Source of the DNA: a virus
DNA length: 59,896 bases
Virus record (IMG/VR): IMGVR_UViG_3300020391_000476
Location: 1-59,896 of that record
Direction: 5' to 3' (one strand)
A model generated the notes under the pieces. It did no database searches and was not told the origin of the DNA. It was given only the letters and a program-made list of their open reading frames with translations. The number at the start of each line of letters is the position of its first letter. Position 1 is the stretch's first letter. Of the stretch, positions 1,344 through 33,400 are shown in pieces. The translations under genes and the position numbers were made by a program.

Positions 1344-2387
1344 TTACAATTTCGATTTAAATAGCTCATAATCACTGAGATACATTTTTTTTACAAGACT
1401 TTTAAAAGTTATTTTGGGTTTCCAGTTTAAATGTTTTTCAGCTAAAGAATAGTCGGCGCAAAGTTTGTGGACTTCTGCTGGCCTATAAAAATTTGAGTCT
1501 ATTACAATAATTGGATTTTTTTTGTAAAAATATTTTTCGTTCTCAAATTCTCCTTCTCTTGTAAAATCAATGTTAGCGCAAGCTAAACATGTTTCTATAA
1601 AATTTCTAACTGAATTCATTTTTCCAGAACCTATGACGTATTCTAAAGGTTTGTCTTGGTTTAACATTAACCAGACAGATTTTATAACATCTTCTGCGTC
1701 AGACCAATCTCTTTTTGCATCTAGATTTCCAAGTCTAATTGGCTCAAAACTTTTGTTTTTTTCTATACAGTGTTTTATTCTAGCTATCCCGTGACTAATT
1801 TTTCTGGTCACAAAATCTAAACCCCTTCTTGGTCCTTCATGATTGAATAACCAGCCTTGTATGGCGTAAAGATTATAAGATTCTCTGTAAACTCTAACAA
1901 TATGTCTTGCTGCGCATTTTGCAGCTCCATAAGGAGATTGGGGTCTAAGTGGGTGAGATTCACTTTGAGGTGTAGAAATTACGTCTCCAAATTCTTCAGA
2001 AGAACCTGCGTTATAAAAGCGGCATTGGGGGGCAAATCTCCTTATTGATTCAAGGATATGGAGAACTGCATCAGCATCTGTGTTCCAAGTTTGAATTGGA
2101 TAATTCCAACTGCCAGCGACAAAAGATTGTGCTCCAAAATTTATAAAATAATCTGGTTGTATATCAATGATAACATCTCTTATACTATGAGCGTCATTCA
2201 AGTCCATATTAAGCAGCTTGAACCTAGGCTCATTTTCTAAATGCAAAATATTGTCATGATTTTTAACGCTAAGCCTGCGGGCAGTTCCGTATATTGTAAA
2301 ATCACTTTCGCTAAGTATTTGCAGTAAATAATCTACCATGTGACTGCCGTCTTGACCTGTGACGCCTGTTATTATAATTTTTTTCAT
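1344..2387 (-). CDS. gmd: GDP-mannose 4,6-dehydratase
   Basis: Converts GDP-mannose to GDP-4-keto-6-deoxymannose, the precursor of GDP-fucose and other deoxyhexoses. It is a 347-residue short-chain dehydrogenase, close to the usual ~350-370 of the family. Visible are the N-terminal Rossmann motif GVTGQDGSHMVDYLL, the AGSSEEFG active-site segment, the catalytic Y-x3-K in SPYGAAK, and the Gmd-specific FNHEGPRRGLDFVTRKI. The RDWSDAEDV substrate-binding region is also present. It is the last gene of the minus-strand sugar operon and overlaps the upstream GT2 gene by 4 bp, so translation is probably coupled. Together with the neighbouring glycosyltransferases it suggests that the phage makes or modifies a deoxysugar glycan on its virion, its DNA or the host surface. 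Confidence 0.93.
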   Translation of the reverse strand: MKKIIITGVTGQDGSHMVDYLLQILSESDFTIYGTARRLSVKNHDNILHLENEPRFKLLNMDLNDAHSIRDVIIDIQPDYFINFGAQSFVAGSWNYPIQTWNTDADAVLHILESIRRFAPQCRFYNAGSSEEFGDVISTPQSESHPLRPQSPYGAAKCAARHIVRVYRESYNLYAIQGWLFNHEGPRRGLDFVTRKISHGIARIKHCIEKNKSFEPIRLGNLDAKRDWSDAEDVIKSVWLMLNQDKPLEYVIGSGKMNSVRNFIETCLACANIDFTREGEFENEKYFYKKNPIIVIDSNFYRPAEVHKLCADYSLAEKHLNWKPKITFKSLVKKMYLSDYELFKSKL

Positions 2388-3019
2388 GAATTGTAAGACA
2401 CAAGTGGCGCATCAAGGTAAATGCCCCTGTATTTATTAAATACTAAATCTTGACAAAATTTACCATCTTCTTTTCTGTAATAAAGTCTAGATTCATTAAA
2501 TTTTAATGTTTTAAATATTTCTGTTTTTATCGTTATATGTGCATGATGAATGGATAGATTCTTATCTATATGTAAATTTGTACAAGCATGATTTATGCTG
2601 AAATTATGATATATGTCAATATTTAAAGATTTAAGCGTTTGAAATTTTGAGTTATTAGTTTGGTAATTATGAAGTAAAAAATCGTAACCTTGGATGTAAT
2701 GTTTGCAAAATTCAATTTTTTGAGGATGAGGAATGTCGTCAACATCAAAAAACATAATATACTCCGCATCACTCATTAATGCTCCTGCGTTTCTGGCAGA
2801 TGACTGCATCCACCTTTCTTCTTGATTTGTGATTTTTATTGGAACAGCATTGCCGCAAATTTTAAAATTTTGATATATTTCTAAAAATTGATTCTTAACG
2901 CCGCTTGAGGATATTATAATTTCGTCTGGTGATATTGTTTGTTTTTGGAATTCATTTAATAATCCATCAAGCAAATGAAAGTCTAAGTCGCAACACGTGA
3001 TGCATAGAGATAAATTCAT
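2384..3019 (-). CDS. Family 2 glycosyltransferase (GT-A fold)
   Basis: Likely transfers a sugar from a nucleotide-sugar donor. It is 211 residues long, short for GT2. The N-terminus MNLSLCITCCDLDFHLLDGL gives the first beta strand, followed by QKQTISPDEIIISSSG. The metal-binding DxD-type motif is in MFFDVDDIPHPQKIEF near residue 95. The C-terminus contains RKEDGKFCQDL, like the ED-x-x-F segment of GT2 enzymes that often precedes the catalytic base. The acceptor is unknown. It starts one base after the stop of the exostosin-like gene and overlaps gmd by 4 bp. Confidence is high for the fold and low for the substrate. Confidence 0.8.
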   Translation of the reverse strand: MNLSLCITCCDLDFHLLDGLLNEFQKQTISPDEIIISSSGVKNQFLEIYQNFKICGNAVPIKITNQEERWMQSSARNAGALMSDAEYIMFFDVDDIPHPQKIEFCKHYIQGYDFLLHNYQTNNSKFQTLKSLNIDIYHNFSINHACTNLHIDKNLSIHHAHITIKTEIFKTLKFNESRLYYRKEDGKFCQDLVFNKYRGIYLDAPLVSYNS

Positions 3020-3898
3020 TTAACGTAAGAAATGAGAGCGTCTAGAACGGAAATAAATCTCTATAGTTTTATGGAGATTGTTTAGTTTAAAAAACTTGTT
3101 GTATATCTCATGCCCGTTTTTAATCATTACCCGCGCAACATTTTGAGGAGGTATCATATTAATGACACTATCTACAGAGGATTCACTAACAAAGATACAA
3201 GAGTCTTCCCAGTTTACATGGTTAGAGATTGGCATCTCTAACCCATCAGAGAATATCACAGGTATAGAGCCTAGCGCAAAAGAATCCCAAATTCTTATGG
3301 TTGATGGGCCTGTCCCACGAGGACATAACGAAAAAACGCACTCTGATAAAGATTTTGCATAATCGGTCTCCATTTGGGCGCGAGCTTCATCGCTTTTCTC
3401 AAAGTGCCATGCGCCTGTATCTATTAAGTTGAAATCAGGATGATTTTTGTAATGATTGAATATTTTTTTACGAGTTTCATGGGTGCAAGAGGCTCCATGA
3501 AAACAAAAAAGATTAGGACGATTAGAGAGGGGTATGGGTTTCGCTATAGGATCAAAGGGGGTGAAGTGAGGTATAGATATATAATTATCCCCTTTGGTAG
3601 CATGTGGAGTAAAAAGAAGACAATTCTCGGGCATCACCAAACGAATAACATCTATATGCTGACATATGAAAACTAAAGTTTTAGTTATAGGGTATCTCTC
3701 TCTGAGAGACTGTAAAAAACGATTAATTAATAAAATGTTTCTATTATTTTTGTTAATAAGATCGGCAAAGGGAAACTTCATAAAAAGATAGTCTTCTTTA
3801 ATCTTAAGGTTTTCTTTTTCTAAGTTACCCCAAATAGTTTCTTCTGTGGAAACTAAGTCTTCACAATAATCAAAGCTTAATATTTCCTCTATAATCAT
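3020..3898 (-). CDS. Exostosin-like glycosyltransferase (GT47 type)
   Basis: A 292-residue GT-B type enzyme. The C-terminal half carries the exostosin signature: FCFHGASCTHETRKKIF, then FSLCPRGTGPSTIRIWDSFA and GSIPVIFSDGLEMPI, corresponding to the family pattern CPRG-x-G-x-S-x-R-x-x-(D/E) followed by G-x-x-P-V-I. The gene overlaps the upstream FkbM gene by 4 bp. Together with the next three upstream genes it is visibly richer in GC than the flanking genes (see findings), which may mark a separate origin. Donor and acceptor sugars cannot be told from the sequence. Confidence 0.8.
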   Translation of the reverse strand: MIIEEILSFDYCEDLVSTEETIWGNLEKENLKIKEDYLFMKFPFADLINKNNRNILLINRFLQSLRERYPITKTLVFICQHIDVIRLVMPENCLLFTPHATKGDNYISIPHFTPFDPIAKPIPLSNRPNLFCFHGASCTHETRKKIFNHYKNHPDFNLIDTGAWHFEKSDEARAQMETDYAKSLSECVFSLCPRGTGPSTIRIWDSFALGSIPVIFSDGLEMPISNHVNWEDSCIFVSESSVDSVINMIPPQNVARVMIKNGHEIYNKFFKLNNLHKTIEIYFRSRRSHFLR

Positions 3899-4512
3899 TG
3901 GGCGTCCTGATCGTAACGAACAAATGTATACTCTTTGCCATTAGGGGTGTACTGCATCGTATATTCCAGTTCGTGAAGTTTTTTAAGGCAGTTAAGCGTG
4001 TCCTGCTCAGTAAAATGAGTGCAAAAATGATGGAACTCTATGCAGAGTTGAGGTACCTTTAGTTCTTTAGTATTTTCTATTATTTCATATTCCGCTCCCT
4101 CTATATCCATTTTTATTACCGCAGTATCTGGGTGTAAGAATAGGAGTTCATTTAGTGTTATAGTGTCACAAATGTGAAATTCATCGGAAGAGTTTTCGTT
4201 AGAGGATAAAATAGACTCAGATACATAGTCGGGGTTTTTTTGTTTAAAAATCTTTATATTTTTGTCCCCAGAGCCAATTAAAGCTTTTTTGATTAAATGA
4301 AAATTAGGAATGTCTTGGGACGCAATGAAATCATGGGATTTAGGAGTGGGGTCCACGCCGATGATAGAGCACGATTTAAGGTTAATCAGGTGTAGATCAA
4401 AGGTTATATCCTCTCCCACTCCCGCAGATATTATTGTAGAACGCTCAGGTATGAGATCGGGAGAAAGAAACCACCCTCCATAATCACTACCCATATAGTT
4501 AAAATTAATCAT
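3895..4512 (-). CDS. FkbM-family SAM-dependent methyltransferase
   Basis: A 205-residue putative O-methyltransferase that probably methylates a sugar hydroxyl. The FkbM signature is visible: IIGVDPTPKSHDFI (end of the SAM-binding core), NFHLIKKALIG, then ITLNELL followed by TAVIKMDIEGAEYEIIEN, the highly conserved K-x-D-x-E-G-x-E box. LCIEFHHF near residue 160 matches the next strand. It sits inside the glycosyltransferase operon and overlaps the upstream gene by 8 bp, which fits capping or decoration of a glycan. Confidence 0.88.
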   Translation of the reverse strand: MINFNYMGSDYGGWFLSPDLIPERSTIISAGVGEDITFDLHLINLKSCSIIGVDPTPKSHDFIASQDIPNFHLIKKALIGSGDKNIKIFKQKNPDYVSESILSSNENSSDEFHICDTITLNELLFLHPDTAVIKMDIEGAEYEIIENTKELKVPQLCIEFHHFCTHFTEQDTLNCLKKLHELEYTMQYTPNGKEYTFVRYDQDAQ

Positions 4513-5344
4513 TGTATGTGATGTAAGATGAAAGTAAATTTTTGGAAGGTCCTTGAAATTGTAAACTATGGAATTTCACTTTTTTGTTATGGATTAGGTT
4601 ATAACCATAAGGATGATTATTTTTCATTTTTATTTCCTTAACGCCTTCATTCATGCGATATTCGTTGTCTAAATGATTGGTGGAATTATTTATGCTATGG
4701 TCAAACGAAGAGTCTTTATGGGAAATACTCGTTAATATGGTGGCAGGAGAAATAAGCTGAGAAAAATGCCACAGGGCGGTCATGTCGCAGACCCCTCCAG
4801 CTAGGTTATTTTCTTTATGGTGAGTCCATTTGGGTTCAAGGAGAGTGGTGAATTTTGATTTATCTTCGTAGAGAGATAACAAAAATTCGCAGAAAGCCTC
4901 GATTTTATTAAGGTTCCAATAAGAAGCTTCACCCGTAGCCGCCCACCTAAAATCTGGTTGATTGTCAGGTATCGAAAGGCCTAAATCAGGTTTATTGAAA
5001 TCGCTATAAGCTTCTTGAATGCATGAATAGATAAGATTGTCAGAGTCCGAATGAAACACAACATCTAGAGATTGGGCTTGCATGACATTTCGAAGGCATA
5101 TCCATCTTATAAAACTTAGGATTTCGAAGTTAGGATTATTGGTGTTAAGATGTCGATATGAGTTGAGGAATCGCTGCACATCCTTATTGTGATCATTGTA
5201 ATTAAAATGCACAACATTATCTACAGATCCTAGACGCGCATTAGAATCATCTCCAATTAAAATCGTTGGGTTTATGTGAGAAGACTGTTTTATTACATGC
5301 TCAAGGTAGGGCGCAAAGCCTAAATGGAAAAAGATAACTTTCAT
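4505..5344 (-). CDS. Putative glycosyltransferase with a DSD motif
   Basis: 279 residues. I do not recognise the family with confidence. The N-terminus MKVIFFHLGFAPYLEHVIKQ looks like a first Rossmann strand and helix. VVFHSDSDNLI near residue 97 carries a D-x-D motif after a hydrophobic strand, as in GT-A glycosyltransferases that bind Mg/Mn and a nucleotide sugar. The downstream segment ending in LAGGVCDMTALWHF resembles the acceptor-side region of such enzymes. It overlaps both neighbours in a sugar operon, which supports the assignment. It could also be an unrelated Rossmann-like enzyme. Confidence 0.55.
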   Translation of the reverse strand: MKVIFFHLGFAPYLEHVIKQSSHINPTILIGDDSNARLGSVDNVVHFNYNDHNKDVQRFLNSYRHLNTNNPNFEILSFIRWICLRNVMQAQSLDVVFHSDSDNLIYSCIQEAYSDFNKPDLGLSIPDNQPDFRWAATGEASYWNLNKIEAFCEFLLSLYEDKSKFTTLLEPKWTHHKENNLAGGVCDMTALWHFSQLISPATILTSISHKDSSFDHSINNSTNHLDNEYRMNEGVKEIKMKNNHPYGYNLIHNKKVKFHSLQFQGPSKNLLSSYITYND

Positions 5345-6003
5345 GTTAGTAAGTTAAATATAAAGTGCTTAACGGATTTCAATAGATTGATTTTATTCTC
5401 TAAGCCCACAGTGTAGTTTGCATGATGGACTAGCATAGTGGCTTTGCGATTTACCTCTATGTTAAAATACTCCTCGCCGTTGTAAATACGCCATTGATTG
5501 TCCATAGCCACAGTATAAAACTTAGACGATAAAGATTTGTAAGATATGCCTGAGGCGGGAAGCAGTTTATTCATTGCGTCTTGGTCTTCTAAAAATTCCT
5601 CTAGACGCTCTTCAATTTCTTCAAACAAAGACACAACCTTATCTGTACATCTCGTTATAAAAAACCCCGCGCATAGTCGTGTGCCGTCACTTTGAAAGGC
5701 CATATCTTTATCTCCTAGTTCTTTAATTAAAGTGGATTGAATGCTGCCATTTTTAGGGAAAAATTGAATATCACAGTCTCCGTGAACTATCATCCCTCCT
5801 TGATTTTCTTTTAAACCATTAATAATCACAGCAAGCTTCCGACGCATAGTATTGTTCCATCCATCTTCGCAGTAAGCTCCACTGGGACACTCTTGGTCGA
5901 ACTCTTCAGCTATCAGAGAAAATTCGTTGTGTGGGAAATTAGGAAGAAAGAAATCTTCATAAAGGCATTTATGACTAGGTGTATAAAAAGTGTAAAATTT
6001 CAT
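5341..6003 (-). CDS. Nucleotide-diphospho-sugar transferase-like glycosyltransferase
   Basis: 220 residues. The pattern matches the Nucleotid_trans family (GT77-like, PF03407 type): IVHGDCDIQFFPK with the D-x-D metal site near residue 77, AFQSDGTRLCAGFFITRC, and the EDQDAMNKLLP box, where the QDA/N pair is a family hallmark. A conserved late His pair (MLVHHANY) may also be functional. It overlaps the upstream end of the DSD-motif gene by 4 bp. The acceptor is unknown. Its base composition matches the GC-richer island of this operon. Confidence 0.75.
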   Translation of the reverse strand: MKFYTFYTPSHKCLYEDFFLPNFPHNEFSLIAEEFDQECPSGAYCEDGWNNTMRRKLAVIINGLKENQGGMIVHGDCDIQFFPKNGSIQSTLIKELGDKDMAFQSDGTRLCAGFFITRCTDKVVSLFEEIEERLEEFLEDQDAMNKLLPASGISYKSLSSKFYTVAMDNQWRIYNGEEYFNIEVNRKATMLVHHANYTVGLENKINLLKSVKHFIFNLLT

Positions 6004-6026
6004 TTATCAATAAGTTAACTGTATTT

Positions 6027-6821
6027 TTAGACATTTATCATACTGTTTATATTTCTTATTATTCTTCTTGCATTACCTGTATGAGTAGTCCCGTATTCTT
6101 TATATTTATCTCTAACCTCTTTTTCTTCGATCATTTTCCAAGAATGATTATTTGGATCAGTTGAAACCCCTGTAGGGTTATCATAATAGACACCAAGAAC
6201 GTCGTTTATCTTTTTCATTTTTGCTCCATTAGCGCCGCACCTTAGCCAAAATTCGTTGTCTGCAGCCGACTTGTAAGACTCATTAAAAAAACCGAATTTG
6301 TCATGTAAGGATTTCCTGTAAACAGGGGATTGGTGTGGAGGGTTGCAGTCTATTATATTTGCCATTGAGAAATCAGGAAAGTTGTACCTGAAAGCACTTT
6401 CTTTTAAAGCTACATCGTAACTGCAATTAATAGAGTTTGTTATAAGACTATCTGCGTAAACTAAATCAATATCTTTGTTTTGATCAAGATATGAGTGTTG
6501 AATTTCTAAAGCGTCTTTTCTTTTTGAATCGTCTAGATTTGCATTATTGAGCATTTCTCCAGAAGATTGTTGTATCGCTATATTCCAGCATGCATAGAGG
6601 CCTGGATCGCTGTCTAGTCTCAAATATTTAATATTTGAGTATTTGTCTTGGTAATTTTTTATTATTGTCGATTCTTGGTCTGGTGAGTTTGCGTCGATTA
6701 ATATCAACTCGCATTCATCAAAAATAGTTTGATTCGTTATATCATTCAGATAGTGGTCTATGTATTTGCCACCTTTAAATATTGAGCAAAAAATGCTTAC
6801 TTTAATTTTTTTACTTGACAT
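6027..6821 (-). CDS. Family 2 glycosyltransferase (first gene of the sugar operon)
   Basis: 264 residues with a clear GT2 N-terminal domain: KVSIFCSIFKGGKYIDHYL, then CELILIDANSPDQES, GLYACWNIAIQQSSGEML and the metal motif NANLDDSKRKDALE. The ANLDD motif plays the D-x-D role. SAADNEFWLRCGANG corresponds to the E/D-W acceptor region. It is the promoter-proximal gene of the operon. The ATG at 6821 lies about 8 bases after the predicted transcription start from a TATACA -10 element, so the leader would be very short and no Shine-Dalgarno is present. Confidence 0.85.
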   Translation of the reverse strand: MSSKKIKVSIFCSIFKGGKYIDHYLNDITNQTIFDECELILIDANSPDQESTIIKNYQDKYSNIKYLRLDSDPGLYACWNIAIQQSSGEMLNNANLDDSKRKDALEIQHSYLDQNKDIDLVYADSLITNSINCSYDVALKESAFRYNFPDFSMANIIDCNPPHQSPVYRKSLHDKFGFFNESYKSAADNEFWLRCGANGAKMKKINDVLGVYYDNPTGVSTDPNNHSWKMIEEKEVRDKYKEYGTTHTGNARRIIRNINSMINV

Positions 6822-7606: not shown

Positions 7607-7986
7607 TAAATAAATTTATAGGAATAGGTAATCTTACGAAAGATCCAGAAAGTAAAAAATTAGGAGAATATTTTAAATGTGGATTCTCAATAGCTATAAA
7701 CTCAACCAAGGATGAAGTTATTTTCCTTGATATAGAATCGTGGGGAAAAACAGCTGAAAATTGTCAGAAGTTTATAAAAAAAGGTTCTCAAGTTTATATC
7801 GAAGGCAAAATAAAAATAAGTAAATGGGAAGATAAAAGTGGCAACAAAAAACAAAAATACTACATAAACGCTGACCTTGTAAGATTTCTTCAAAAAGATA
7901 AAAAGGAACATGACTCTTCTCCAAGAGAACCAGAGCCAGCACAAAGCGTAAAAGAAATCGTAAACGAAGAAGAAATGCCATTTTAA
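7603..7986 (+). CDS. ssb: Single-stranded DNA-binding protein
   Basis: 127 residues with one OB fold. The N-terminus MINKFIGIGNLTKDPESK is the classic SSB opening (family pattern N-x-x-x-L-x-G-x-L-x-x-D-P-E). FLDIESWGKTAENC and GSQVYIEGKIKISKWEDKSG are the standard strands 4 and 5. The tail after residue 100 is charged and proline-containing and ends in EEEMPF, the acidic tip through which bacterial-type SSBs recruit repair and replication partners. Start: ATGA overlap with the sigma gene, with GGAG 14 bases upstream. It coats ssDNA during phage replication and recombination. Confidence 0.93.
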   Translation: MINKFIGIGNLTKDPESKKLGEYFKCGFSIAINSTKDEVIFLDIESWGKTAENCQKFIKKGSQVYIEGKIKISKWEDKSGNKKQKYYINADLVRFLQKDKKEHDSSPREPEPAQSVKEIVNEEEMPF

Positions 7987-9071
7987 TGAATAAAATTAAC
8001 TACAATGGCCCCATCAATCCTTTAAGTTTTGGGAATGTATCTTACAATTTTTTAAAACATCTTTATAGAAAAGAGATTGAGGTTTGTTATTTTCCAATAG
8101 GAAATAATCTAGACTTCTCAGCTTTTGATAAAGCTGAAGACGATTTTAAAAAATGGGTTTACAGTAGCTATGAAAATCGTTATAAGAACTTATCATCTGA
8201 TTCTCCCTCGCTAAGGATGTGGCACATCAACGGTTCTGATATAAGATATGGTAAGCGTCAATTTTTATATACTTTTTACGAATGCGACCAACCGACATTA
8301 ATTGAAAAAAACCTTTGCAACTATCAGGATAAAACAATCTTTAGCAGTTCTCATGCTAAAAAAATATTCAAAGAAAACGGTTGTGATAATTCAGAATACA
8401 TACCAATAGGTTTCGATGAAGATTTTCACGAAACAGGTAAAACATATCTAGAAGATAAAGTTAGTTTTGGTATAGTTGGAAAATTTGAAAAAAGAAAGCA
8501 TACAGCAAGAATACTAAAATTATGGGCTGATAAGTATGGAGATAATGATAAGTATCAATTAACTTGCTCCATAACAAATCCTTTTTTTAAGAAAGAGCAG
8601 CAAAATTCTTTAATACTAAAAGCGTTAGAAGGTAAAATGTATAAAAATATTAACCTACTCCCATTCGTCAAAACTAATACTGAAATGAATGAAGTCTATA
8701 ATGCTATAGATATAAACCTAAGCGGCCTCAGTGGTGCAGAAGGATGGAATCTTCCAGCCTTTAACTCTACCTGCTTAGGTAAGTGGAGTATTGTTTTAAA
8801 TTCAACTTCTCATAAAGATTGGGCTAATAACGAAAACTCAATACTCATAAATCCCAGCGATCAAGAAGATATATATGATAAAATTTTCTTTACAGAAGGC
8901 GAGGATTACAACCAAGGCACAATGTCAACTTTTACAGACGATCAGTTTTACGAAGCTTGTGAACTAGCGGAAAAAAAGAATAAACAAAAAAATAAAAAAG
9001 GGGTAGAATTAATAAAACAATTTAATTACAATAAAACCATTGATAAAATATTACAATTAATGCAATCATGA
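7986..9071 (+). CDS. Family 4-like glycosyltransferase (GT-B fold)
   Basis: 361 residues. The C-terminal Rossmann domain is recognisable: VSFGIVGKFEKRKHTARILK (the usual GT4 strand after the interdomain linker), then NLLPFVKTNTEMNEVYNAID and INLSGLSGAEGWNLPAFNST. The last contains the E-x-x-x-P-A position equivalent to the GT4 donor-binding E-G-x-x-x-P-x-x-E box, although the second Glu is not obvious. The N-terminal domain includes LSFGNVSYNFLKHL. It shares one base with the ssb stop and overlaps the next small gene by 4 bp. The substrate is unknown. Its place between replication genes rather than in the leftward sugar operon is notable. Confidence 0.72.
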   Translation: MNKINYNGPINPLSFGNVSYNFLKHLYRKEIEVCYFPIGNNLDFSAFDKAEDDFKKWVYSSYENRYKNLSSDSPSLRMWHINGSDIRYGKRQFLYTFYECDQPTLIEKNLCNYQDKTIFSSSHAKKIFKENGCDNSEYIPIGFDEDFHETGKTYLEDKVSFGIVGKFEKRKHTARILKLWADKYGDNDKYQLTCSITNPFFKKEQQNSLILKALEGKMYKNINLLPFVKTNTEMNEVYNAIDINLSGLSGAEGWNLPAFNSTCLGKWSIVLNSTSHKDWANNENSILINPSDQEDIYDKIFFTEGEDYNQGTMSTFTDDQFYEACELAEKKNKQKNKKGVELIKQFNYNKTIDKILQLMQS

Positions 9072-9967: not shown

Positions 9968-10504
9968 ATGAGTATACAAATCTATAAACCAAACAAAGAT
10001 AACACAGGTTTCGGTTTTTCTTTTAGCTTAGGTAAAGATAAAAAAAGCAATGAGCCTGTTATGTTCGTCAATGCAATAGCTCAGTATTCCTGGAATGATG
10101 GAGTTGGTTCATTTCAAAAAAATTCTGAAAATCCAGATAAAAATATATCTGTAAAATTCAATGAATTTGAATGTGGCGCAATTATATCATGCATAAAAGA
10201 CAGGTACGAATGGAATACTTTCCATCAAAGCAAAGATAATAAAACCACAATTAGATTGACTCCTTGGGATAAACCTGTCACTATTCAAAAGTTTAATCCA
10301 CAAACAAAAGGTTACGAATCCACTAAACAAAAAGTTCCAGCTTTCGGTATGACAATGACCAAGAACGGAAATCAAACTTTTAAAATTTCTTTGGATCCAG
10401 GTGAGTGCGAATGCATCGTTAGATTTTTAGAGTTATTGCTCGCTAAATTATATTCTCATAGAATAACTAAGAACAGTAAATATATCGAACCTTTTGATGG
10501 GTAA
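9968..10504 (+). CDS. Unknown protein, possible ssDNA-binding (PC4/whirly-like) fold
   Basis: 178 residues, starting two bases after the previous stop. I do not recognise it firmly. It appears to contain two similar halves, each made of beta strands followed by an amphipathic helix: FNEFECGAIISCIKDR near residue 62 and LDPGECECIVRFLELLLAK near residue 142. The strand-rich part with KTTIRLTPWDKP and FGMTMTKNGNQTFKISLDPG suggests a PC4/whirly-like ssDNA-binding domain, which would fit the SSB and the Rad52-like protein in the same operon. That is inference from pattern only. Confidence 0.5.
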   Translation: MSIQIYKPNKDNTGFGFSFSLGKDKKSNEPVMFVNAIAQYSWNDGVGSFQKNSENPDKNISVKFNEFECGAIISCIKDRYEWNTFHQSKDNKTTIRLTPWDKPVTIQKFNPQTKGYESTKQKVPAFGMTMTKNGNQTFKISLDPGECECIVRFLELLLAKLYSHRITKNSKYIEPFDG

Positions 10505-12416
10505 AAAGAAGAAAATATTATTTCATAGTAACCATAGTAAAGCTTTCACTGGTTTTGGAAAAAACTGTAAAAACGTATTAACTTATTTATACAAGACAGG
10601 GAAATACGAAATAATAGAAGCTGCAAATGGATTTACTAAAAGCAACCCTGCTTTAAAAAAGATGCCATGGAAGTGTGTTGGTACTTTGCCAGATAATCAA
10701 GCTAGACTTGCTCAATTAAATAAAGACCCAAACTTAGCTAGGGCCGCTTCTTATGGTGGAGAAACTATTGATTCTTTAATTAAAGAATTTCAACCTGATA
10801 TTTACGTAGGCGCAGAAGATATTTGGGGATTTAATAGATACTGGGATAAAAAATGGTGGAATAAAATAAACTGTATGGTTTGGACCACCCTAGATTCAGA
10901 ACCTATACTACCCCTAGCTATCGAGGCAGCTGGCTATGTTAAGAATTACTTCTGCTGGGCTAGTTTTGCTGAAAGAGAAATGCATAGGCTTGGTCACAAA
11001 CATATTAAAACATTAAGGGGTATTGTTGATAGTAAGCACTTTTTTAAATTAAATAAAGAAAAGAAAGAGTCTTTGAGAAAAAAATATAGGATTGATTCTA
11101 ATAGCTTTATAATAGGTTTTGTTTTTAGAAATCAATTAAGAAAAAGTGTTCCCAATCTACTTGATGGCTTTAAACAATTTTGTGAAAATAACCCTGAATC
11201 TAATGCTAAGTTATTACTTCATACTAGTTGGGCTGAGGGCTGGGATATACCAAGACTAATAAAAGAGAAAAAAATAGATAATCTAAGAGTACTAACTACT
11301 TATTTTTGTAAAGAATGTAAAAGTTATGACATTAGGCCTTTCTCTGGACAGGAGCAAGATTGTAGATTTTGTAAAACTAAAAAATCTCAAAATACAATTA
11401 CTGCTGCGCATGGAGTTTCTGAAAAACAATTGAATGAAATTTATAATCTAATGGATGTATATTGCCACCCATTTACATCTGGCGGTCAGGAAATACCAAT
11501 ACAAGAGGCTAAATTAACAGAATTAATTACATTGGTTACAGATTATAGTTGCGGAGAAGATCATTGTACAGAAGAGAGCGGAGGACTTCCTTTGTCTTGG
11601 TCTGAATACAGAGAGCCAGGAACTCAATTTATAAAAGCTAGTACATCACCATCAAGTATAACAAAACAACTTGAAGAGGTTTACAAAATGGATCTTTCTA
11701 AAAAGATAAAAAAGGGTAAAACTTCTAGGCAATTTGTTATAGACAATTACTCAACGAAGGTTATAGGTGGCCAGCTTGAATCTATATTCGACAATATGCC
11801 CAATATTGATTGGGATTTCGATTTTAAAGAAAAACCAAGAAATCCAGATTACGAGCCTAACGAAAATTTAAGTGATTCAGATTGGCTTGTAGAAATATAT
11901 TTAAATATTTTAAACATGGAAGTTGACCCTTCTTCTGACAAAGGGCATAAATATTGGATGAATAAAATAAAAGAGAAATTTCCTAGAGATAAAATATTAA
12001 ATTATTTTAAAGAAGTCGCCTCTAAAGAAAACGAACAAATCTTCAATAAAAAAACTATAGAAGATTATTTAGATGGAGATTCTCCTGATAATAGAATTGC
12101 TGTAGTTATGCCTGGTAGCGCTGGTGATGTGTTAATGGTAAATTCTTTAATAGATAATTTAAAATCTTTATACCCTAACAAAGATATATATTTTATTACT
12201 AAACCTATATTTTACCCTTTAATAGAAGATAATATAAATATTCACAGACTAATACCTTATGACGAAAGTTATGATAGTTTATTAACACTAGAAGGCTCAA
12301 GCTCGCATAAGGGGTATTTTAGTATAGCTTACCTACCTCATATAGGAACGCAAAAGATTTTAAATTATGTACATAACGGGGAAGATAAAATGCAAATTGA
12401 ATTATATGAAAATTGA
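10497..12416 (+). CDS. Three-part glycosyltransferase: GT4, DUF4214-like domain, N-half of GT9
   Basis: About 639 residues from the ATG at 10497; a TTG one codon earlier is in frame but less likely. Residues 1-430 are a GT-B family 4 enzyme, with HSNHSKAFTGFGKNCKNVL and the donor-site segment CHPFTSGGQEIPIQEAKLTE (the E-x7-E type box). Inside it, near residues 255-275, CKEC and CRFC form a C-x2-C...C-x2-C zinc ribbon not expected in GT4. Residues 455-515 (LVEIYLNILNMEVDPSSDKG, then HKYWMNKI) look like a DUF4214 domain. The last ~105 residues begin RIAVVMPGSAGDVLMVNSLI, the N-terminal Rossmann motif of GT9 heptosyltransferases (G-D-x-L). The GT9 C-half is encoded by the gene at 12792. It overlaps the DUF6165 gene by 11 bp. 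Confidence 0.78.
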   Translation: MGKKKKILFHSNHSKAFTGFGKNCKNVLTYLYKTGKYEIIEAANGFTKSNPALKKMPWKCVGTLPDNQARLAQLNKDPNLARAASYGGETIDSLIKEFQPDIYVGAEDIWGFNRYWDKKWWNKINCMVWTTLDSEPILPLAIEAAGYVKNYFCWASFAEREMHRLGHKHIKTLRGIVDSKHFFKLNKEKKESLRKKYRIDSNSFIIGFVFRNQLRKSVPNLLDGFKQFCENNPESNAKLLLHTSWAEGWDIPRLIKEKKIDNLRVLTTYFCKECKSYDIRPFSGQEQDCRFCKTKKSQNTITAAHGVSEKQLNEIYNLMDVYCHPFTSGGQEIPIQEAKLTELITLVTDYSCGEDHCTEESGGLPLSWSEYREPGTQFIKASTSPSSITKQLEEVYKMDLSKKIKKGKTSRQFVIDNYSTKVIGGQLESIFDNMPNIDWDFDFKEKPRNPDYEPNENLSDSDWLVEIYLNILNMEVDPSSDKGHKYWMNKIKEKFPRDKILNYFKEVASKENEQIFNKKTIEDYLDGDSPDNRIAVVMPGSAGDVLMVNSLIDNLKSLYPNKDIYFITKPIFYPLIEDNINIHRLIPYDESYDSLLTLEGSSSHKGYFSIAYLPHIGTQKILNYVHNGEDKMQIELYEN

Positions 12417-12795
12417 AACACCAATATCAGTAGGCGAACTTTTAGATAAGATATCTATACTCAAGATTAAATCTTTTAAAATAAAAGATGAAAAAAAACT
12501 TAAAAATATAAAACTTGAATTAGAATATTTAAACTATATTGCAAGAGAAAAATTAAGTGAATACAAAAATTTTGAGAAAAGAAGCGAAGAGCTTTATCAA
12601 GTTAACGCCTCCCTCTGGAACATAGAAGATCAAATAAGGGTTGCAGAAAAAAGAAAAGATTTTGATAGCGAATTCATTTTTTTAGCCAGATCTGTATATA
12701 TAACAAACGACAAAAGGTTTGATATAAAAAATAAAATTAACGAAGAGTGTGGCTCTGAATTAAAAGAAGAAAAATCTTACGAAAAATATTCATGA
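12406..12795 (+). CDS. DUF6165-family protein
   Basis: The longest open frame begins at 12367, but I place the start at the ATG at 12406, giving 129 residues. The protein then opens MKIETPISVGELLDKISILK, the typical DUF6165 N-terminus. The rest is mostly helical with charged residues, including ELYQVNASLWNIEDQIRVAE. The molecular function is unknown; in bacteria the family is found beside LPS and glycosyltransferase genes. Here it lies between the two halves of a GT9 enzyme, overlapping the upstream half by 11 bp and the downstream half by 4 bp (ATGA), so the three should be made in step. It may be an assembly partner of the split enzyme. Confidence 0.8.
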   Translation: MKIETPISVGELLDKISILKIKSFKIKDEKKLKNIKLELEYLNYIAREKLSEYKNFEKRSEELYQVNASLWNIEDQIRVAEKRKDFDSEFIFLARSVYITNDKRFDIKNKINEECGSELKEEKSYEKYS

Positions 12796-13982
12796 GTCAC
12801 CTTATTGAAGAGTATGCAAAATCTTTAGGAGTAAAAATTGGCGAACCTACCTTAGACCCTCATTTTTTTCCAATATTAAAAGAAAAATATATAACCTTTC
12901 ATACCAACAATGAGAAAGTTAAAGCCAAACATTATGATCATTGGCCCATTGTTTATGGATTAATATCTGATTATTTAAAACAGAATAATATATCAATCAT
13001 ACAAGTTGGTGGTCCCGACGATCCTCAAACCTCTTTTTGTGACCAAGATACTAGGGGCGCTTCATTTAAGCAAATGTCTTATATTATCAAAAGCGCAATA
13101 CTTCATCTTGGTATAGATAGTTTACCTATGCATATAGCCAGTGCTTACGATAAAAAAATTGTTTCTTTGTTTTCTAATCTTTACATTAATAACGCTTCTC
13201 CTATATGGAATAAAAATAGTGAAGTAAAACTTTTTGCGCCAGATTTTACAGATCAAAAACCGTCTTTTAGATTTGATGAAAGTAAAAAAAGAGTAAATGA
13301 AATAAGCCCAGAAGAAGTAGCAAAAGCTGTTTTAGATTTACTTGATATAAAAAACGATTTATCAGACATAGAAACCTTAAGTATAGGTTATCATTATCAA
13401 AATATAATAACCGAAATAATTCCAGATTTTATTCCAAATGATAGTGATTTTCAAGGAAAACTTATTAACTTAAGATGTGACTACGACGTTATGGAAGAGT
13501 CTCTTGTTAAGTGGTTAACAAGAAAAACTAACTTAATGATTAACAAGCCCATTGATATAAATACAATAAATTTTTTCAAAGATAATATAGCGGGCTTAAC
13601 AATATTTTTAGGAGAACATGAGTTTCACGAAGAATACTTTGAAAACTTAAATAAACTAAATATAAATTTTAACTTAATCTCTAGGCATAAAGATAAACTT
13701 CCTGACTTACGCTTGAAGTTTTTTGATTACACGGTTGAAGAATACGTCGATTATCTAAAAAAAGATCTTGACTTTACTTCAGAATTATGCAATGATACAT
13801 ATTATCACAGTAATAAAACCTTAATTTCAAAAAACAAAAAATACAGTAGTAAAGCAGCGTGGAAGCAAGGAATAGAAAAAACCCAAGAACATCAAAAGAT
13901 CATTGACACTAAAGATTTTTGGGAAGAATTCCAACATTTAAACATATATAATTATGCCAAGAACAAAAAGCTCAGATACTAA
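12792..13982 (+). CDS. C-half of a GT9 glycosyltransferase plus an unknown domain
   Basis: 396 residues. Residues 1-185 match only the C-terminal Rossmann domain of GT9 (ADP-heptose:LPS heptosyltransferase superfamily): KYITFHTNNEKVKAKHYDHW, ISIIQVGGPDDP, LHLGIDSLPMHIASAYDKKI (the conserved D-S-x-P-x-H-x-A nucleotide-sugar site) and EISPEEVAKAVLDLL. The N-terminal domain is missing here but is present at the end of the protein encoded at 10497-12416. Residues 190-396 are an unrecognised, probably alpha/beta domain containing GLTIFLGEHEFHEEYFENL. It overlaps the next gene by 29 bp. It is in the same reading frame as the GT4-GT9N gene. Confidence 0.75.
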   Translation: MSHLIEEYAKSLGVKIGEPTLDPHFFPILKEKYITFHTNNEKVKAKHYDHWPIVYGLISDYLKQNNISIIQVGGPDDPQTSFCDQDTRGASFKQMSYIIKSAILHLGIDSLPMHIASAYDKKIVSLFSNLYINNASPIWNKNSEVKLFAPDFTDQKPSFRFDESKKRVNEISPEEVAKAVLDLLDIKNDLSDIETLSIGYHYQNIITEIIPDFIPNDSDFQGKLINLRCDYDVMEESLVKWLTRKTNLMINKPIDINTINFFKDNIAGLTIFLGEHEFHEEYFENLNKLNINFNLISRHKDKLPDLRLKFFDYTVEEYVDYLKKDLDFTSELCNDTYYHSNKTLISKNKKYSSKAAWKQGIEKTQEHQKIIDTKDFWEEFQHLNIYNYAKNKKLRY

Positions 13983-14742
13983 ACGTAAATCAGGACCATC
14001 TATATTTTCAAGAGACAGTGATGGTTTATTAATTAATACTGACTACGAATTTAATGAAGATGGCTCTATAAATTGGAGAGCTATGGTTAAAGAAGATCAC
14101 TTATTTCCCAATAAATTGTGGTTTCAAAACAGAGGAAAAGATACACCAAGGTCTACTGAAGGTTTAGCAGACCATCAACTCCTTATTAAACTTGGAGGAA
14201 TAAAAGAGCTTGCTAAGCTAAGAGGTTTTTCTAAGTTATCTTATGAAGTAGTAAAATGTGAAGAAGAACATGTTGCGGTTATTTGCACAATGACCTTTCT
14301 TCCAAACTACGAAACATTTGGCGAACCTGTAACTTTTCAAGACATGGCTAATGCCACTCTTAATAATACAAGTAGTTTTGCAACTAAATTTTTAGAGACT
14401 ATAGCTTGCAATAGAGCTTTTGTAAGATGCGTCAGAAATTTTCTGCAAGTTCATATTGTAGGAGATGATGAAATAGATAAGTCTGATGGCCCAAGTAAGG
14501 TAACTCCTAAATATAAAAGTACTTCTCCAGCAAATCCTCTAAGCCCAACCTCTTCCCTTCAAAACAAAGCTTTAGAAGTTTTAGGCTGCGAATCTTTTGC
14601 CGACTTTAAATCAAACCATATTAAAGTTTGGTGGCAAGAAAAAATAGAAGGAATATATTCTAATGATTCTATTAAAAAAGCAGAAGATTGGTCTGATGTG
14701 GATGCTAAAGATGCCAGAATAATGCTTGGCTTAATTAATTAA
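13954..14742 (+). CDS. Putative Rad52-like ssDNA-annealing or recombination protein
   Basis: 262 residues. The central region, from LIKLGGIKELAKLRGFSKLS through VAVICTMTFLPN to FLETIACNRAFVRCVRNFLQ, has the beta-beta-beta-alpha look and the T-x-A-x-x-R-A-x-x-R-x-x-R helix seen in Rad52-type annealing proteins and other phage recombination proteins. The tail after residue 180 is a Ser/Pro/Lys-rich linker leading to a small helical domain. The assignment is inference and would fit with ssb upstream. It ends the rightward operon, its stop overlapping that of the convergent tail-tip gene by 4 bp. Confidence 0.45.
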   Translation: MPRTKSSDTKRKSGPSIFSRDSDGLLINTDYEFNEDGSINWRAMVKEDHLFPNKLWFQNRGKDTPRSTEGLADHQLLIKLGGIKELAKLRGFSKLSYEVVKCEEEHVAVICTMTFLPNYETFGEPVTFQDMANATLNNTSSFATKFLETIACNRAFVRCVRNFLQVHIVGDDEIDKSDGPSKVTPKYKSTSPANPLSPTSSLQNKALEVLGCESFADFKSNHIKVWWQEKIEGIYSNDSIKKAEDWSDVDAKDARIMLGLIN

Positions 14743-29331: not shown

Positions 29332-30404
29332 CTCTTATTATAATAAGCTGTGTAGCTTAAATTTGCAGTTAATCTTCCATCTGTTGATGCCGACATTGAT
29401 TCGTTTGTTAATCTAGCTAATTTTACCGTATAATTTTGTATTGGCTCACCAAAGCAATCTTTTATTCTTATAGCTAAGTTATGTAGGGTAGGAGATTTTA
29501 AATACTTTCTCAGGCTTTTATATTGTCTTTCGTCAACTTCAACCGTAAAATTTGTTTTTGTTGTAATAGGCCAAATGACATCAACCTGAGCGGGCACTGT
29601 TGATCCTACTGTATAAATAGGATCTATTCCAATATTGATAGTATGATTAAATGATGTAATTCTATCAAATACATAATCGCCTTGATCTGTTTCGTAGTCA
29701 GTGGGATACGATTCACTTTCGTTTTCTTTTAGTAGCCCTCCTATTTCAACTTCTATAGATTTTTGATTTGTTAGTCTTATTTCAGGAAAAGGTAATTCTC
29801 CTGAAGCGTTATAAGTTGTGGGGTTGTCTGTATCTTCCTGTATGAATAGAAAATTGTCTTCGCTTTTTAGGTCTGTATCATCTTCGTTTTCTATGATATC
29901 TGGAGATCCACCTATATCTCCTAAAACTCTAATATTTGTGCTTGTTGTGGGCAATTGACCTATTCCACACGATACAGAATGACTTGTTATGTATCCGCTA
30001 TGAAATCCAAAATAACTATTGCCGTGATGAATACTGCCTGTAAATGGGTTATCACCAGTAAAATTTAACATAAAATCTTCGCTAACTAAAATTGAATTTA
30101 TGCTGAAAGTTCCTTCTAGTGGAGCATCTAGTAAAGCTAAACTTTCTGGCAGTCTTTCATTTCTTTCCCTGGTGCATATTTTTTCTTGTAAAAGTTTAAA
30201 TCCGTCAGCATCCAACAAGAAGCCTTGCTCGGTTACCTGGAAATATTCGGCTTGTTTATAAAATGATCTATTAACGTGACCCCAGCCAAGCACGTTTATA
30301 GGTTTTTCTGATATAGAATACGAACCCTCAACACTTTGTACTCCAGAAATTTGAGTACCGTTGAGATAAAATTGCTGTTCATAACCTAGTACCGCTTGTC
30401 TCAT
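29328..30404 (-). CDS. Tail tube-like paralog adjacent to the tape measure gene
   Basis: 358 residues. The opening EQQFYLNGTQISGVQSVEGS, then YSISEKPINVLGWGHVN, closely parallels the R-V-Q-S-A-x-x-x-x-x-I-x-R-Q-x-I-x-Q-x-G pattern in the two upstream tube proteins. LQEKICTRERNERLPESLAL and the later EVDERQYKSLRKYLKSPTLH are additional helices. It overlaps the tape measure stop by 4 bp. A role as the tube's terminal ring below the tape measure is inferred. Confidence 0.6.
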   Translation of the reverse strand: MRQAVLGYEQQFYLNGTQISGVQSVEGSYSISEKPINVLGWGHVNRSFYKQAEYFQVTEQGFLLDADGFKLLQEKICTRERNERLPESLALLDAPLEGTFSINSILVSEDFMLNFTGDNPFTGSIHHGNSYFGFHSGYITSHSVSCGIGQLPTTSTNIRVLGDIGGSPDIIENEDDTDLKSEDNFLFIQEDTDNPTTYNASGELPFPEIRLTNQKSIEVEIGGLLKENESESYPTDYETDQGDYVFDRITSFNHTINIGIDPIYTVGSTVPAQVDVIWPITTKTNFTVEVDERQYKSLRKYLKSPTLHNLAIRIKDCFGEPIQNYTVKLARLTNESMSASTDGRLTANLSYTAYYNKR

Positions 30405-33400
30405 TTATCGAGTTCTCCGCCTAGTCTTTTCTCCTCTCTTATAACCTCTAATACTCTTGTTTTTATTTTCATAGCAAGCTCTTGTTCTTGTTGGTAGGAT
30501 CCTTCTGGCGTTTGAGCTTCCACACTTTCTTTGCCAGAGCTGTCAATGGTTACATTAACACTAATATTGTTGGTTATCTCGTTGTTTTGAGCTGCGCTTG
30601 TTTTTTCTGTTTCTGATGATTTTGCAGCTTCTATTAAAGGCTGTATTCTGTTTACTGGTTGATTTCCTTTTGGGCTTTCTGGGTTTGATTGGTTCGAGGG
30701 AAAGCTGGCCTGGCTGCCAGTACCAACAATTCCGCCATCATAATACCCAGTTGCGCTTTTCCTGAATCCATCTGGATTTTGCATTGCGAAACGCATGGTA
30801 TTTGGATTGTCTCGCATCAACTTATCGGTAGAACTTTTTCTTATAATAAAATCTCCTTCGTCAAGTCCAACAGGGCCAACTTTATCAATCCCAGATGGGC
30901 CTTGTATTGTAGGAAGAGAGCCTGTTCTGTTCATTGATTCAAGGTTCTGATAGCCGATTTTTTTAGCTGTACTTGAAGGTATAAACCCTTCTCCTCTTGT
31001 TAACATTGATGGAATTTTTCCTCCAGAATTATTTCGCAAAGTTCTTCTTCCGTAAGAGCTTTCCATGTTGTTTGAGTCTGGGCGGGTGGGATCAACAAAA
31101 GCCCTGTCATCAAATGTTCTTGTCCTTGTTACTTTTAAGAAATTGCCAGGTTGATAAGAGATTGATCCTTCAGGCCCAACCCTTCTTCTATCTTGAGGTG
31201 TTAAGGTGCGCGTGGTTGCATTCTTTTTACCTCGATTAGTTGTATATTCTATCGGCTGTCCAGTTTCAAAAGAGTTTTTTATTTGATTGTAACTAAGATC
31301 ATATCCAGTTTTATTTGCTGCTTTATAAGCATCTGAATATTCTCCAAACCCTAAATCTCCATTAAAGAAATCACTAGCTTTGTTTCCAATGTATTTTCCT
31401 GTTTTTACAAAAGGTGATGATATGAAATCAACCGTTTTTCTTAAAGGTTCTCTAAGAATGTCTGTTACTTCGGCGACGGCAAAGCTGCTTATGAAACCCA
31501 TAGCTTGCTGGAGGTATCCCATTCTTTTTTTGAATTTAGCGTTCTTTTTATCTACTTCGTATGCGGCTTTCTCTAAAAGATAATCTTTATACTCTTGCAT
31601 CTCCTGGCTTTTCGCTAAAGCCCTTCCGCTCATTCTTGGGTCTCCTGTTTTTAAACTAACATCAGAACCTAGGGCAAGAGGGTTCATTCTTTTCATATCA
31701 AAGACGGGTGGCCCCTTTTTCTTGCTTTGATCTTCCATTGCTTTATTTACAGCGTCAGCAGTTATGGTCATGACTGCGGCTTGAGTGGCTCCTTTAAAGA
31801 ATCTAGTAGCCCTTCCTCCTCCCGAGAAATTTTGAACCTCTTCTTTGGGCACAACATATTCTCCAGCAGTTAACATTGCTGGGACATTATCTATACCTCC
31901 TGGGCCTTCAACTAAGCCACCTTTTGCAAAGCGTTGGATTTTTCCGCCCCAGAAATTTTTTCCAGGAGGAGTGGGTTCTACTGCTGGAGGAGAGTCTGTT
32001 GTTGTGGTAGTTGCAGAAGGTTGTTGGAGACTAGCTGCTCGAGCTTCTGTTGCAATAGTTATTGCATTTTGCGCCGCAGACTCCCTCATTTTATTTATAT
32101 ATAATTGTTTTTCTAGTTCATTTATTTGGTATGCGATTGATTTTTCTATTTCTGCTAAACTAACTTTTTCTTCAAGTAATTTGCTTATTGTTGCGGTATT
32201 GGTTTTTCTTTGAGCTTGTTTTGACTTTAGTTCTGCGGTAAGATTAGTAATTTCTTCTTCGTGCTTTATTGATTGTTCTATATGATTTTCATTAGGCAGA
32301 CCCAATCTTTTCTTGTTAATGCTCAAACGATCATGTCTTTTTGCTTGTCTTGTGCTGTTTTTTATTTTTTCTTCGATCCCTTTTATTTCTTCATCTATTT
32401 TTCCATAATTAGTGGCTTCAACTTTTGTAGGAGGTAACGTTTGTGGCATGTATGGCACATACGGCATCATTGGCGCATAATTTTGTATAGTAAATCCAGG
32501 TTTATCCATTAGGGATTTTTCTTGTTCCGCTTCTTTTAAATTGTTTTTATTAACTTCTAATTTTTCTTGATTTAAGGTAGCATCCCGTTCTAATTTTGCT
32601 AATTGTCTTAATGTTCCATATACTGGAGGATCTGGGCTCAACTCTAATTCTAGACCACTTCCTTTTTCATTAAATGGCGTCGTTTTAACAGTATCATTAG
32701 TTACTGGGTCTACTTTTGCATCTACTTCCGATTTAATTTCTTCAAGCTTTTGTCTTATTTTTTCGAAAGCTCCACTTAAGCTTTCTACAAGACCTATTCC
32801 AGCATTTGTAAAATCTGTTATTTTAATATCTAGGCCTTCTAGTAAAGGCTTAAAGGTATTGTTTATTCTATCTTGCTCGATTTGTTCAGCTGTTTCTTTT
32901 GTGGGCTCTTTTGAAAATTCTGGAGGTGGAGGTGGTATTATTCCCTTCATTAATTGACCTCTTAGTTTTTCCAATGCCGAAGTGTTTGCAGATACTGCGT
33001 TGTTGTTTTCCATTAAAAATTTATTCGCTTCTTTTTCTGGGTCTACTCCAGTAAATGCATAAGTTAAATTACTAATGATTTTATCAACATTGTGTTGCAT
33101 CATTCTATCTAGAATTGCTTCAGCTAAACCAAGACCAAGATCCCGATATGCATCGCCTACTGATTTAGCGCCTGACCCAATATCTTTAAACATTTGAACC
33201 ATATTGGTTCTCAAATTTTCAATACCTGTATTTACTAAATCTGATTTTAGATTAGAGGCAGAAACTTGCATCTCAGCCATTTTTACTCTTAAGGCGTCTA
33301 TCGCTTCTGTTCCATTGTTTGTGGTTTTGTTAAATTCCTTTAATTTTTCAGTGAACGCAAGCATGTCTTCCGCTGTTGCATTAGGATTGATTGCCTGTGT

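What the first reader, a model, noticed from the sequence alone, without database searches (positions are those of the whole stretch)
10497..13982. GT9 glycosyltransferase split in two, with a DUF6165 gene lying between the halves
The GT9 N-terminal domain (MPGSAGDVLMVNSLI) is the last ~105 residues of the GT4 fusion protein, while the GT9 C-terminal domain (DSLPMHIASAYD) starts the protein encoded at 12792. The DUF6165 gene lies exactly between them. The two halves are in the same reading frame and the joint (...KMQIELYEN, then HLIEEYAKSLGV...) reads as if it had once been continuous. Short overlaps keep translation coupled. The enzyme may work as a two- or three-chain complex, as the split Alg13/Alg14 transferase does in eukaryotes.
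Basis: partly seen in the sequence, partly recalled or inferred. Interest (0 to 1): 0.7.

Follow-up and report, generated by a model that had tools for sequence, protein, structure and literature searches.

The report
Conserved two-gene split GT9 sugar transferase
A whole lineage of uncultivated water-borne phages makes one sugar-transferring enzyme as two separate proteins, and the small DUF6165 gene that sits between the two genes in this phage is a later passenger that most of its relatives lack.

Summary
The C-terminal ~110 residues of the GT4 fusion (10497-12416) are the N-terminal half of a GT9 transferase. The protein at 12792-13982 carries the GT9 C-terminal half plus a ~208-residue extension, and DUF6165 (12406-12795) lies between. 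It is neither a sequencing error nor specific to this genome. All 67 non-redundant loci in which I could read both genes complete are split at the same loop, in all three relative frames. Both halves match the same solved GT9 chains in complementary stretches. A read-through model of one relative folds into a GT9-type structure (pLDDT 90.6, pTM 0.89). The N-half catalytic Asp is invariant (67/67). The two halves co-diverge more tightly with each other (r 0.86) than with the domains on their own chains (0.72, 0.75).

The same-frame relation is incidental. Best reading: an obligate two-chain GT9 tethered to a GT4. Split GT-B enzymes are known (Alg13/Alg14, EpsE/EpsF); I found no report of a split GT9, so this is a new variant. 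Assembly of two chains is not shown experimentally.

The parts
10497..12083 (+). GT4 glycosyltransferase with an inserted Cys4 (CxxC...CxxC) putative zinc ribbon, followed by a DUF4214-like region; N-terminal part of chain A
   Evidence: Pfam GT4 1.3e-5 and DUF4214 4.4e-4, both below the curated cut-offs; PHROG 2170 3.4e-14; Cys4 motif in 67 of 67 loci
12084..12416 (+). GT9 N-terminal half (acceptor-side Rossmann domain, MPGSAGD catalytic Asp) at the C-terminus of chain A, with a ~9-residue tail KMQIELYEN and TGA stop at 12414-12416
   Evidence: profile hits 3tov 9-63 and 1psw 2-56; Asp invariant 67/67; dN/dS 0.04-0.07
12406..12795 (+). DUF6165 gene (129 aa, predicted four-helix bundle) lying in the gap between the GT9 halves; accessory cargo
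   Evidence: Pfam DUF6165 3e-8; model pLDDT 93.9; present between the halves in 8 of 67 loci, two or three gains
12792..13355 (+). GT9 C-terminal half (donor-side Rossmann domain, GIDSLPMH motif), N-terminal part of chain B
   Evidence: Pfam Glyco_transf_9 9.7e-7; profile hits 1psw 239-338, E 1.9e-7; read-through model of relative L046 matches GT9 folds
13356..13982 (+). C-terminal extension of chain B (~208 aa), unknown function, with near-invariant Gly199, Arg228 and Asp230
   Evidence: conserved with the C-half in the family, G 66/67, R 66/67, D 67/67; no convincing Pfam family
9968..10504 (+). p178, conserved upstream neighbour of the module, unknown function
   Evidence: synteny in most relatives
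13954..14742 (+). p262, conserved downstream neighbour of the module, unknown function
   Evidence: synteny in nearly all relatives; no PDB hit

Best explanation
This is a GT9 glycosyltransferase whose two Rossmann domains are made by two genes throughout a large lineage of uncultivated phages. Chain A is a GT4 enzyme (with a Cys4 insert, usually followed by a DUF4214-like region) ending in the GT9 acceptor-side half with the catalytic Asp. Chain B starts with the GT9 donor-side half and ends in a ~208-residue extension. Inferred mechanism: the chains associate to complete one GT-B active site, so that a GT4 and a GT9 sit on one scaffold and add successive sugars to a phage-directed glycan. 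The target is unknown; a virion or host-surface glycan is more likely than DNA. The break falls in a loop between the two domains that is modelled with low confidence, which is probably why splitting was tolerated. The gap between the genes has since received glycan-type cargo, DUF6165 here. Shown by sequence: the split, its universality in the sampled loci, homology of both halves to GT9, conserved residues, selection and co-divergence. Inferred: physical association, activity, sugar and target.
For: Split at the same loop in 67 of 67 non-redundant loci, spacing -14 to +14 nt where nothing intervenes, all three frames. The two half-profiles hit complementary stretches of the same GT9 chains 3tov and 1psw. 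L046 read through its single TAA, with other relatives' halves as alignment, gives pLDDT 90.6 and pTM 0.89, below 50 only at the break. Foldseek best hits are GT9 3tov (E 9e-12, 362 columns, TM 0.60 by target), WaaF, WaaC and TibC. Intact relative L041 shows the two halves directly abutting. N-half Asp 67/67; C-half Tyr48 67/67. Co-divergence r(GT9N,GT9C) 0.864 against 0.718 (GT9N-GT4) and 0.749 (GT9C-extension), bootstrap differences above zero, partial r 0.68 against a permutation maximum of 0.21. dN/dS 0.03-0.13 in all parts where it could be computed.
Against: No binding or activity data. Only 4 of the 92 alignment rows behind the model are genuinely paired, and the chains were covalently joined in it, so the packing may reflect GT9 homology rather than a tested interface. 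In 10 of 67 loci, mostly one clade, the donor-site Asp of the C-half is lost, so some members may be inactive or altered. Co-divergence could partly reflect similar evolutionary rates. The N domain is short compared with WaaF, though intact L041 is equally short.
Confidence: 0.72

Rival explanations
1. The GT9 is broken or decaying in this lineage: the halves are remnants, each kept for another role (for example the N-half as a folding domain of the GT4, the C-half as a carrier for the extension).
For: Donor-site Asp lost in 10 of 67 loci, 7 of them one clade; GT-B halves without activity would be easy to overlook.
Against: N-half Asp invariant in 67/67; strong purifying selection on both halves; the halves co-divergent beyond their own-chain domains; the window keeps both motifs.
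Confidence: 0.15
2. Three-subunit enzyme: DUF6165 bridges or regulates the two GT9 halves.
For: DUF6165 was captured exactly between the halves two or three times; in other phages DUF6165 sits in sugar loci and next to at least one intact GT9 (L105).
Against: 59 of 67 split loci lack it there; cupin, Anp1-type GT and FkbM methyltransferase genes take the same place in three; in two Bacteroidota chromosomes DUF6165 has no evident glycan neighbour in the stretch held.
Confidence: 0.12
3. The halves are joined at translation by programmed frameshifting or stop read-through, giving one polypeptide.
For: Five relatives have the halves in frame 0 with no intervening gene; most others overlap or abut.
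Against: All three frame relations occur; no common junction sequence was seen; in 11 loci a whole gene intervenes, including the window; the C-half has a start codon of its own at the joint.
Confidence: 0.03
4. Sequencing or assembly error made the stop.
For: None found.
Against: Independent contigs with identical architecture at 96%, 82% and 61% identity of the C-half protein, and 67 distinct loci in all.
Confidence: 0.01

Closest known systems
GT9 heptosyltransferases (WaaC, WaaF, Veillonella GT9 3tov, TibC)
   Same: Both Rossmann halves, catalytic Asp in the N-half, GxDSxxxH-type motif in the C-half; best fold matches.
   Different: One polypeptide in the known enzymes; here two chains, the first fused to a GT4, the second to an unknown extension. 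Donor sugar unknown.
Alg13/Alg14 and bacterial EpsE/EpsF split GT-B transferases
   Same: A GT-B enzyme made as two chains divided between acceptor-side and donor-side domains (PMC4973528 for EpsE/EpsF and Alg13/14).
   Different: Those are MurG relatives with a membrane-anchor half; here GT9, no membrane segment evident, N-half fused behind a GT4. Works like them, is not a member.
Intact viral GT9 proteins (L041 here; BFVD entries such as A0A6J7WHE7)
   Same: Same fold; L041 also shares the short N domain and sequence motifs and shows the unbroken joint.
   Different: Single chain; L041 continues into a GT2 domain and has no GT4 in front.

Membership tests
GT9 (Glyco_transf_9) | C-terminal donor-binding domain recognised by the family profile | tested here: met
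   9.7e-7, above the curated cut-off; 36 of 45 members scanned match
GT9 (Glyco_transf_9) | N-terminal Rossmann domain with catalytic Asp | tested here: met
   profile hits 3tov and 1psw N-termini; Asp 67/67; that this Asp is the catalytic one follows from established knowledge of WaaC
GT9 (Glyco_transf_9) | two halves together adopt the GT9 GT-B fold | tested here: met
   read-through model of relative L046, Foldseek to GT9 structures; joined in one chain in the model, not shown for separate chains
GT9 (Glyco_transf_9) | both domains in one polypeptide | tested here: not met
   two genes in 67 of 67 loci
GT9 (Glyco_transf_9) | sugar transfer activity, donor identity | not testable with these tools
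   needs biochemistry
Alg13/Alg14-type split transferase (MurG/GT28 relatives) | sequence kinship to MurG/Alg13/Alg14 | tested here: not met
   best sequence and fold hits are GT9, not MurG
Alg13/Alg14-type split transferase (MurG/GT28 relatives) | membrane-anchor half | tested here: not met
   no 19-residue stretch above hydropathy 1.6 in any of the three proteins (a simple hydropathy test)
Alg13/Alg14-type split transferase (MurG/GT28 relatives) | two chains form one active enzyme | not testable with these tools
   supported only indirectly by co-divergence and modelling
DUF6165 (PF19662) | family profile above the curated cut-off | tested here: met
   33.9 bits against 27

The most novel reading that the evidence does not exclude
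An obligate heteromeric GT9, the first split reported in this family, in which a tethered GT4 and the GT9 acceptor half form one chain and the donor half is a separate subunit with its own extension. The gene gap created by the split serves as a recurrent entry point for glycan-modifying cargo in an uncultivated phage lineage.
Probability: 0.4. Interest if true: 0.68.

Novelty: new variant of a known kind. Interest (0 to 1): 0.57.

Why it matters
It shows a GT9 transferase stably divided between two genes across a deeply diverged phage lineage, which extends the split GT-B principle to a further family. It gives a natural two-chain system for studying how GT-B halves assemble and which half sets donor or acceptor. 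It also corrects annotation, since both halves are easily missed or called unknown: Pfam does not see the N-half at all.

Tried and rejected
DNA glycosylation as the target: only 2 of 24 carrier records hold a thymidylate-synthase-family gene, so a hydroxymethyl-base pathway is not evident (many records are fragments). Isolated phages: no usable relative in 50,697 records; the hits were weak, to Campylobacter phages A11a/A18a and Synechococcus phage S-CBS4. DUF6165 function by fold: a confident four-helix bundle with no significant PDB match. GT4-GT9N full-length profile against PDB: nothing at E 0.01. Literature searches for a split GT9 or a split phage glycosyltransferase returned nothing relevant. 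Identity of p262 and p178: no Pfam or PHROG family for either, and no PDB match for p262. Donor-half swapping between lineages: no clear outlier pairs in N-versus-C distances.

Full report
What is there. The window is a whole IMG/VR virus record of 59,896 bases. On the + strand lie three overlapping genes: a GT4 fusion protein (10497-12416), a DUF6165 gene (12406-12795) and a protein starting with a GT9 C-terminal domain (12792-13982). They are followed by a conserved gene p262 and preceded by p178. The stop that ends the first gene is TGA at 12414-12416, and each joint is a short overlap (11 and 4 nt).

Are both halves GT9? Pfam sees only the C-half (9.7e-7). A profile of 46 N-halves finds two GT9 structures, 3tov (residues 9-63, E 8e-4) and 1psw, the WaaF heptosyltransferase (2-56, E 0.015). 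A profile of 45 C-halves finds the same two chains at 1psw 239-338 (1.9e-7) and 3tov 247-340 (0.014). The two proteins therefore match complementary, colinear parts of one enzyme.

Is the split real and general? Scans of viral contigs brought in relatives down to about 30% identity, and a scan of cellular genome assemblies added a dozen contigs, about half of them in metagenome-assembled genomes named as Bacteroidota. Among 67 loci that differ by more than about 7% and in which both genes could be read at near full length, all 67 have the GT9 divided at the same point. Where nothing lies between, the genes overlap or are separated by at most 14 nt, and the relative reading frame is 0, 1 or 2 in 5, 26 and 25 cases. 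A sequencing error and a fixed frameshift signal are both excluded by this. The same frame in the window is thus incidental. An intact relative, L041, reads ...ATQASNNWTRNGHGEHLARTYATHCGV...: the two halves abut within a few residues, and the tail KMQIELYEN of the window N-half has no counterpart. L041 was the only one-chain protein that the half-profiles brought in.

Do the halves work together? I could not model two chains. As a proxy I read relative L046 through the single TAA that separates its in-frame halves, with the halves of other relatives as alignment rows. The model has mean pLDDT 90.6 and pTM 0.89, with confidence below 50 only at the break. Its best PDB matches are GT9 3tov (E 9e-12, 362 alignment columns, TM 0.60 by target length), WaaF, WaaC and TibC. 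The model is of a joined chain and only four of 92 rows are paired, so it shows that the halves complete one fold, not that separate chains bind. Independent support comes from divergence: pairwise identities of GT9N and GT9C correlate at 0.864, although they lie on different proteins, against 0.718 for GT9N with the GT4 on its own chain and 0.749 for GT9C with its own extension. Bootstrap intervals of the differences exclude zero, and the partial correlation given GT4 and extension is 0.68 against a permutation maximum of 0.21. The N-half Asp is invariant in 67 of 67, as is Tyr48 of the C-half. The C-half donor Asp is kept in 57 of 67. dN/dS against the two nearest relatives is 0.03-0.13 in every part where it could be computed.

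DUF6165. It lies between the halves in 8 of the 67 loci, in two clades, and the DUF6165 tree suggests up to three captures (support is moderate). In three other loci the same gap holds a cupin (L029), an Anp1-type glycosyltransferase (L048) and an FkbM methyltransferase (L089). In the remaining 56 nothing lies between. Insertions over 250 nt occur at this joint in 11 of 67 loci, against 3 of 63 and 1 of 66 at the neighbouring joints; since related loci share insertions, this is suggestive only. In other phages DUF6165 often lies in glycan loci. In two Bacteroidota chromosomes it lies near a gene that looks like thymidine kinase, with no evident glycan gene in the short stretch held. Its predicted structure is a four-helix bundle without a significant PDB match. 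It is best seen as accessory cargo.

Setting. The window also carries a glycan gene cluster at 1344-6821 and a second GT4 at 7986-9071. Combined with the absence of a thymidylate-synthase-family gene in 22 of 24 carrier records, this makes a protein or surface glycan a likelier target than DNA, but the target is inferred. Hosts may be Bacteroidota, on the weak ground that about half of the assemblies holding the module are binned there. Among 299 genomes of the family of one such assembly, only that assembly itself holds the C-half gene, so it is a phage gene rather than a host gene. No isolated phage in the collection carries it.

Judgement. The novelty lies in the conserved split of a GT9 fused to a GT4, not in the DUF6165 gene. 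Split GT-B transferases are known in the MurG family (PMC4973528), so this is a new variant of a known kind. Experiment is needed for association and activity.

Noticed in passing
window 1344-6821 (-): Phage-borne glycan gene cluster: sugar-nucleotide dehydratase, two GT2, an exostosin-type GT47, an FkbM methyltransferase and a nucleotide-diphospho-sugar transferase.
   Followed up: partly
window 10497-12083: The GT4 domain holds a CxxC...CxxC motif, present in 67 of 67 loci, probably a zinc ribbon of unknown purpose.
   Followed up: partly
L068, L069, L070, L071, L078, L079, L084; also L056, L184, L186: The donor-site Asp of the GT9 C-half is lost while the N-half Asp stays; these enzymes may be altered or inactive.
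   Followed up: no
L029, L048, L089: A cupin, an Anp1-type glycosyltransferase and an FkbM methyltransferase gene occupy the gap between the GT9 halves in place of DUF6165.
   Followed up: partly
L201, L202: DUF6165 in two Bacteroidota chromosomes lies near a gene that looks like thymidine kinase, not among glycan genes.
   Followed up: no
window 13356-13982: The C-half extension has no known family but near-invariant Gly, Arg and Asp; it may be a separate catalytic or targeting domain.
   Followed up: no
window 30401-43765 (-): A 4454-residue open reading frame on the strand of the tail-side genes, not examined.
   Followed up: no
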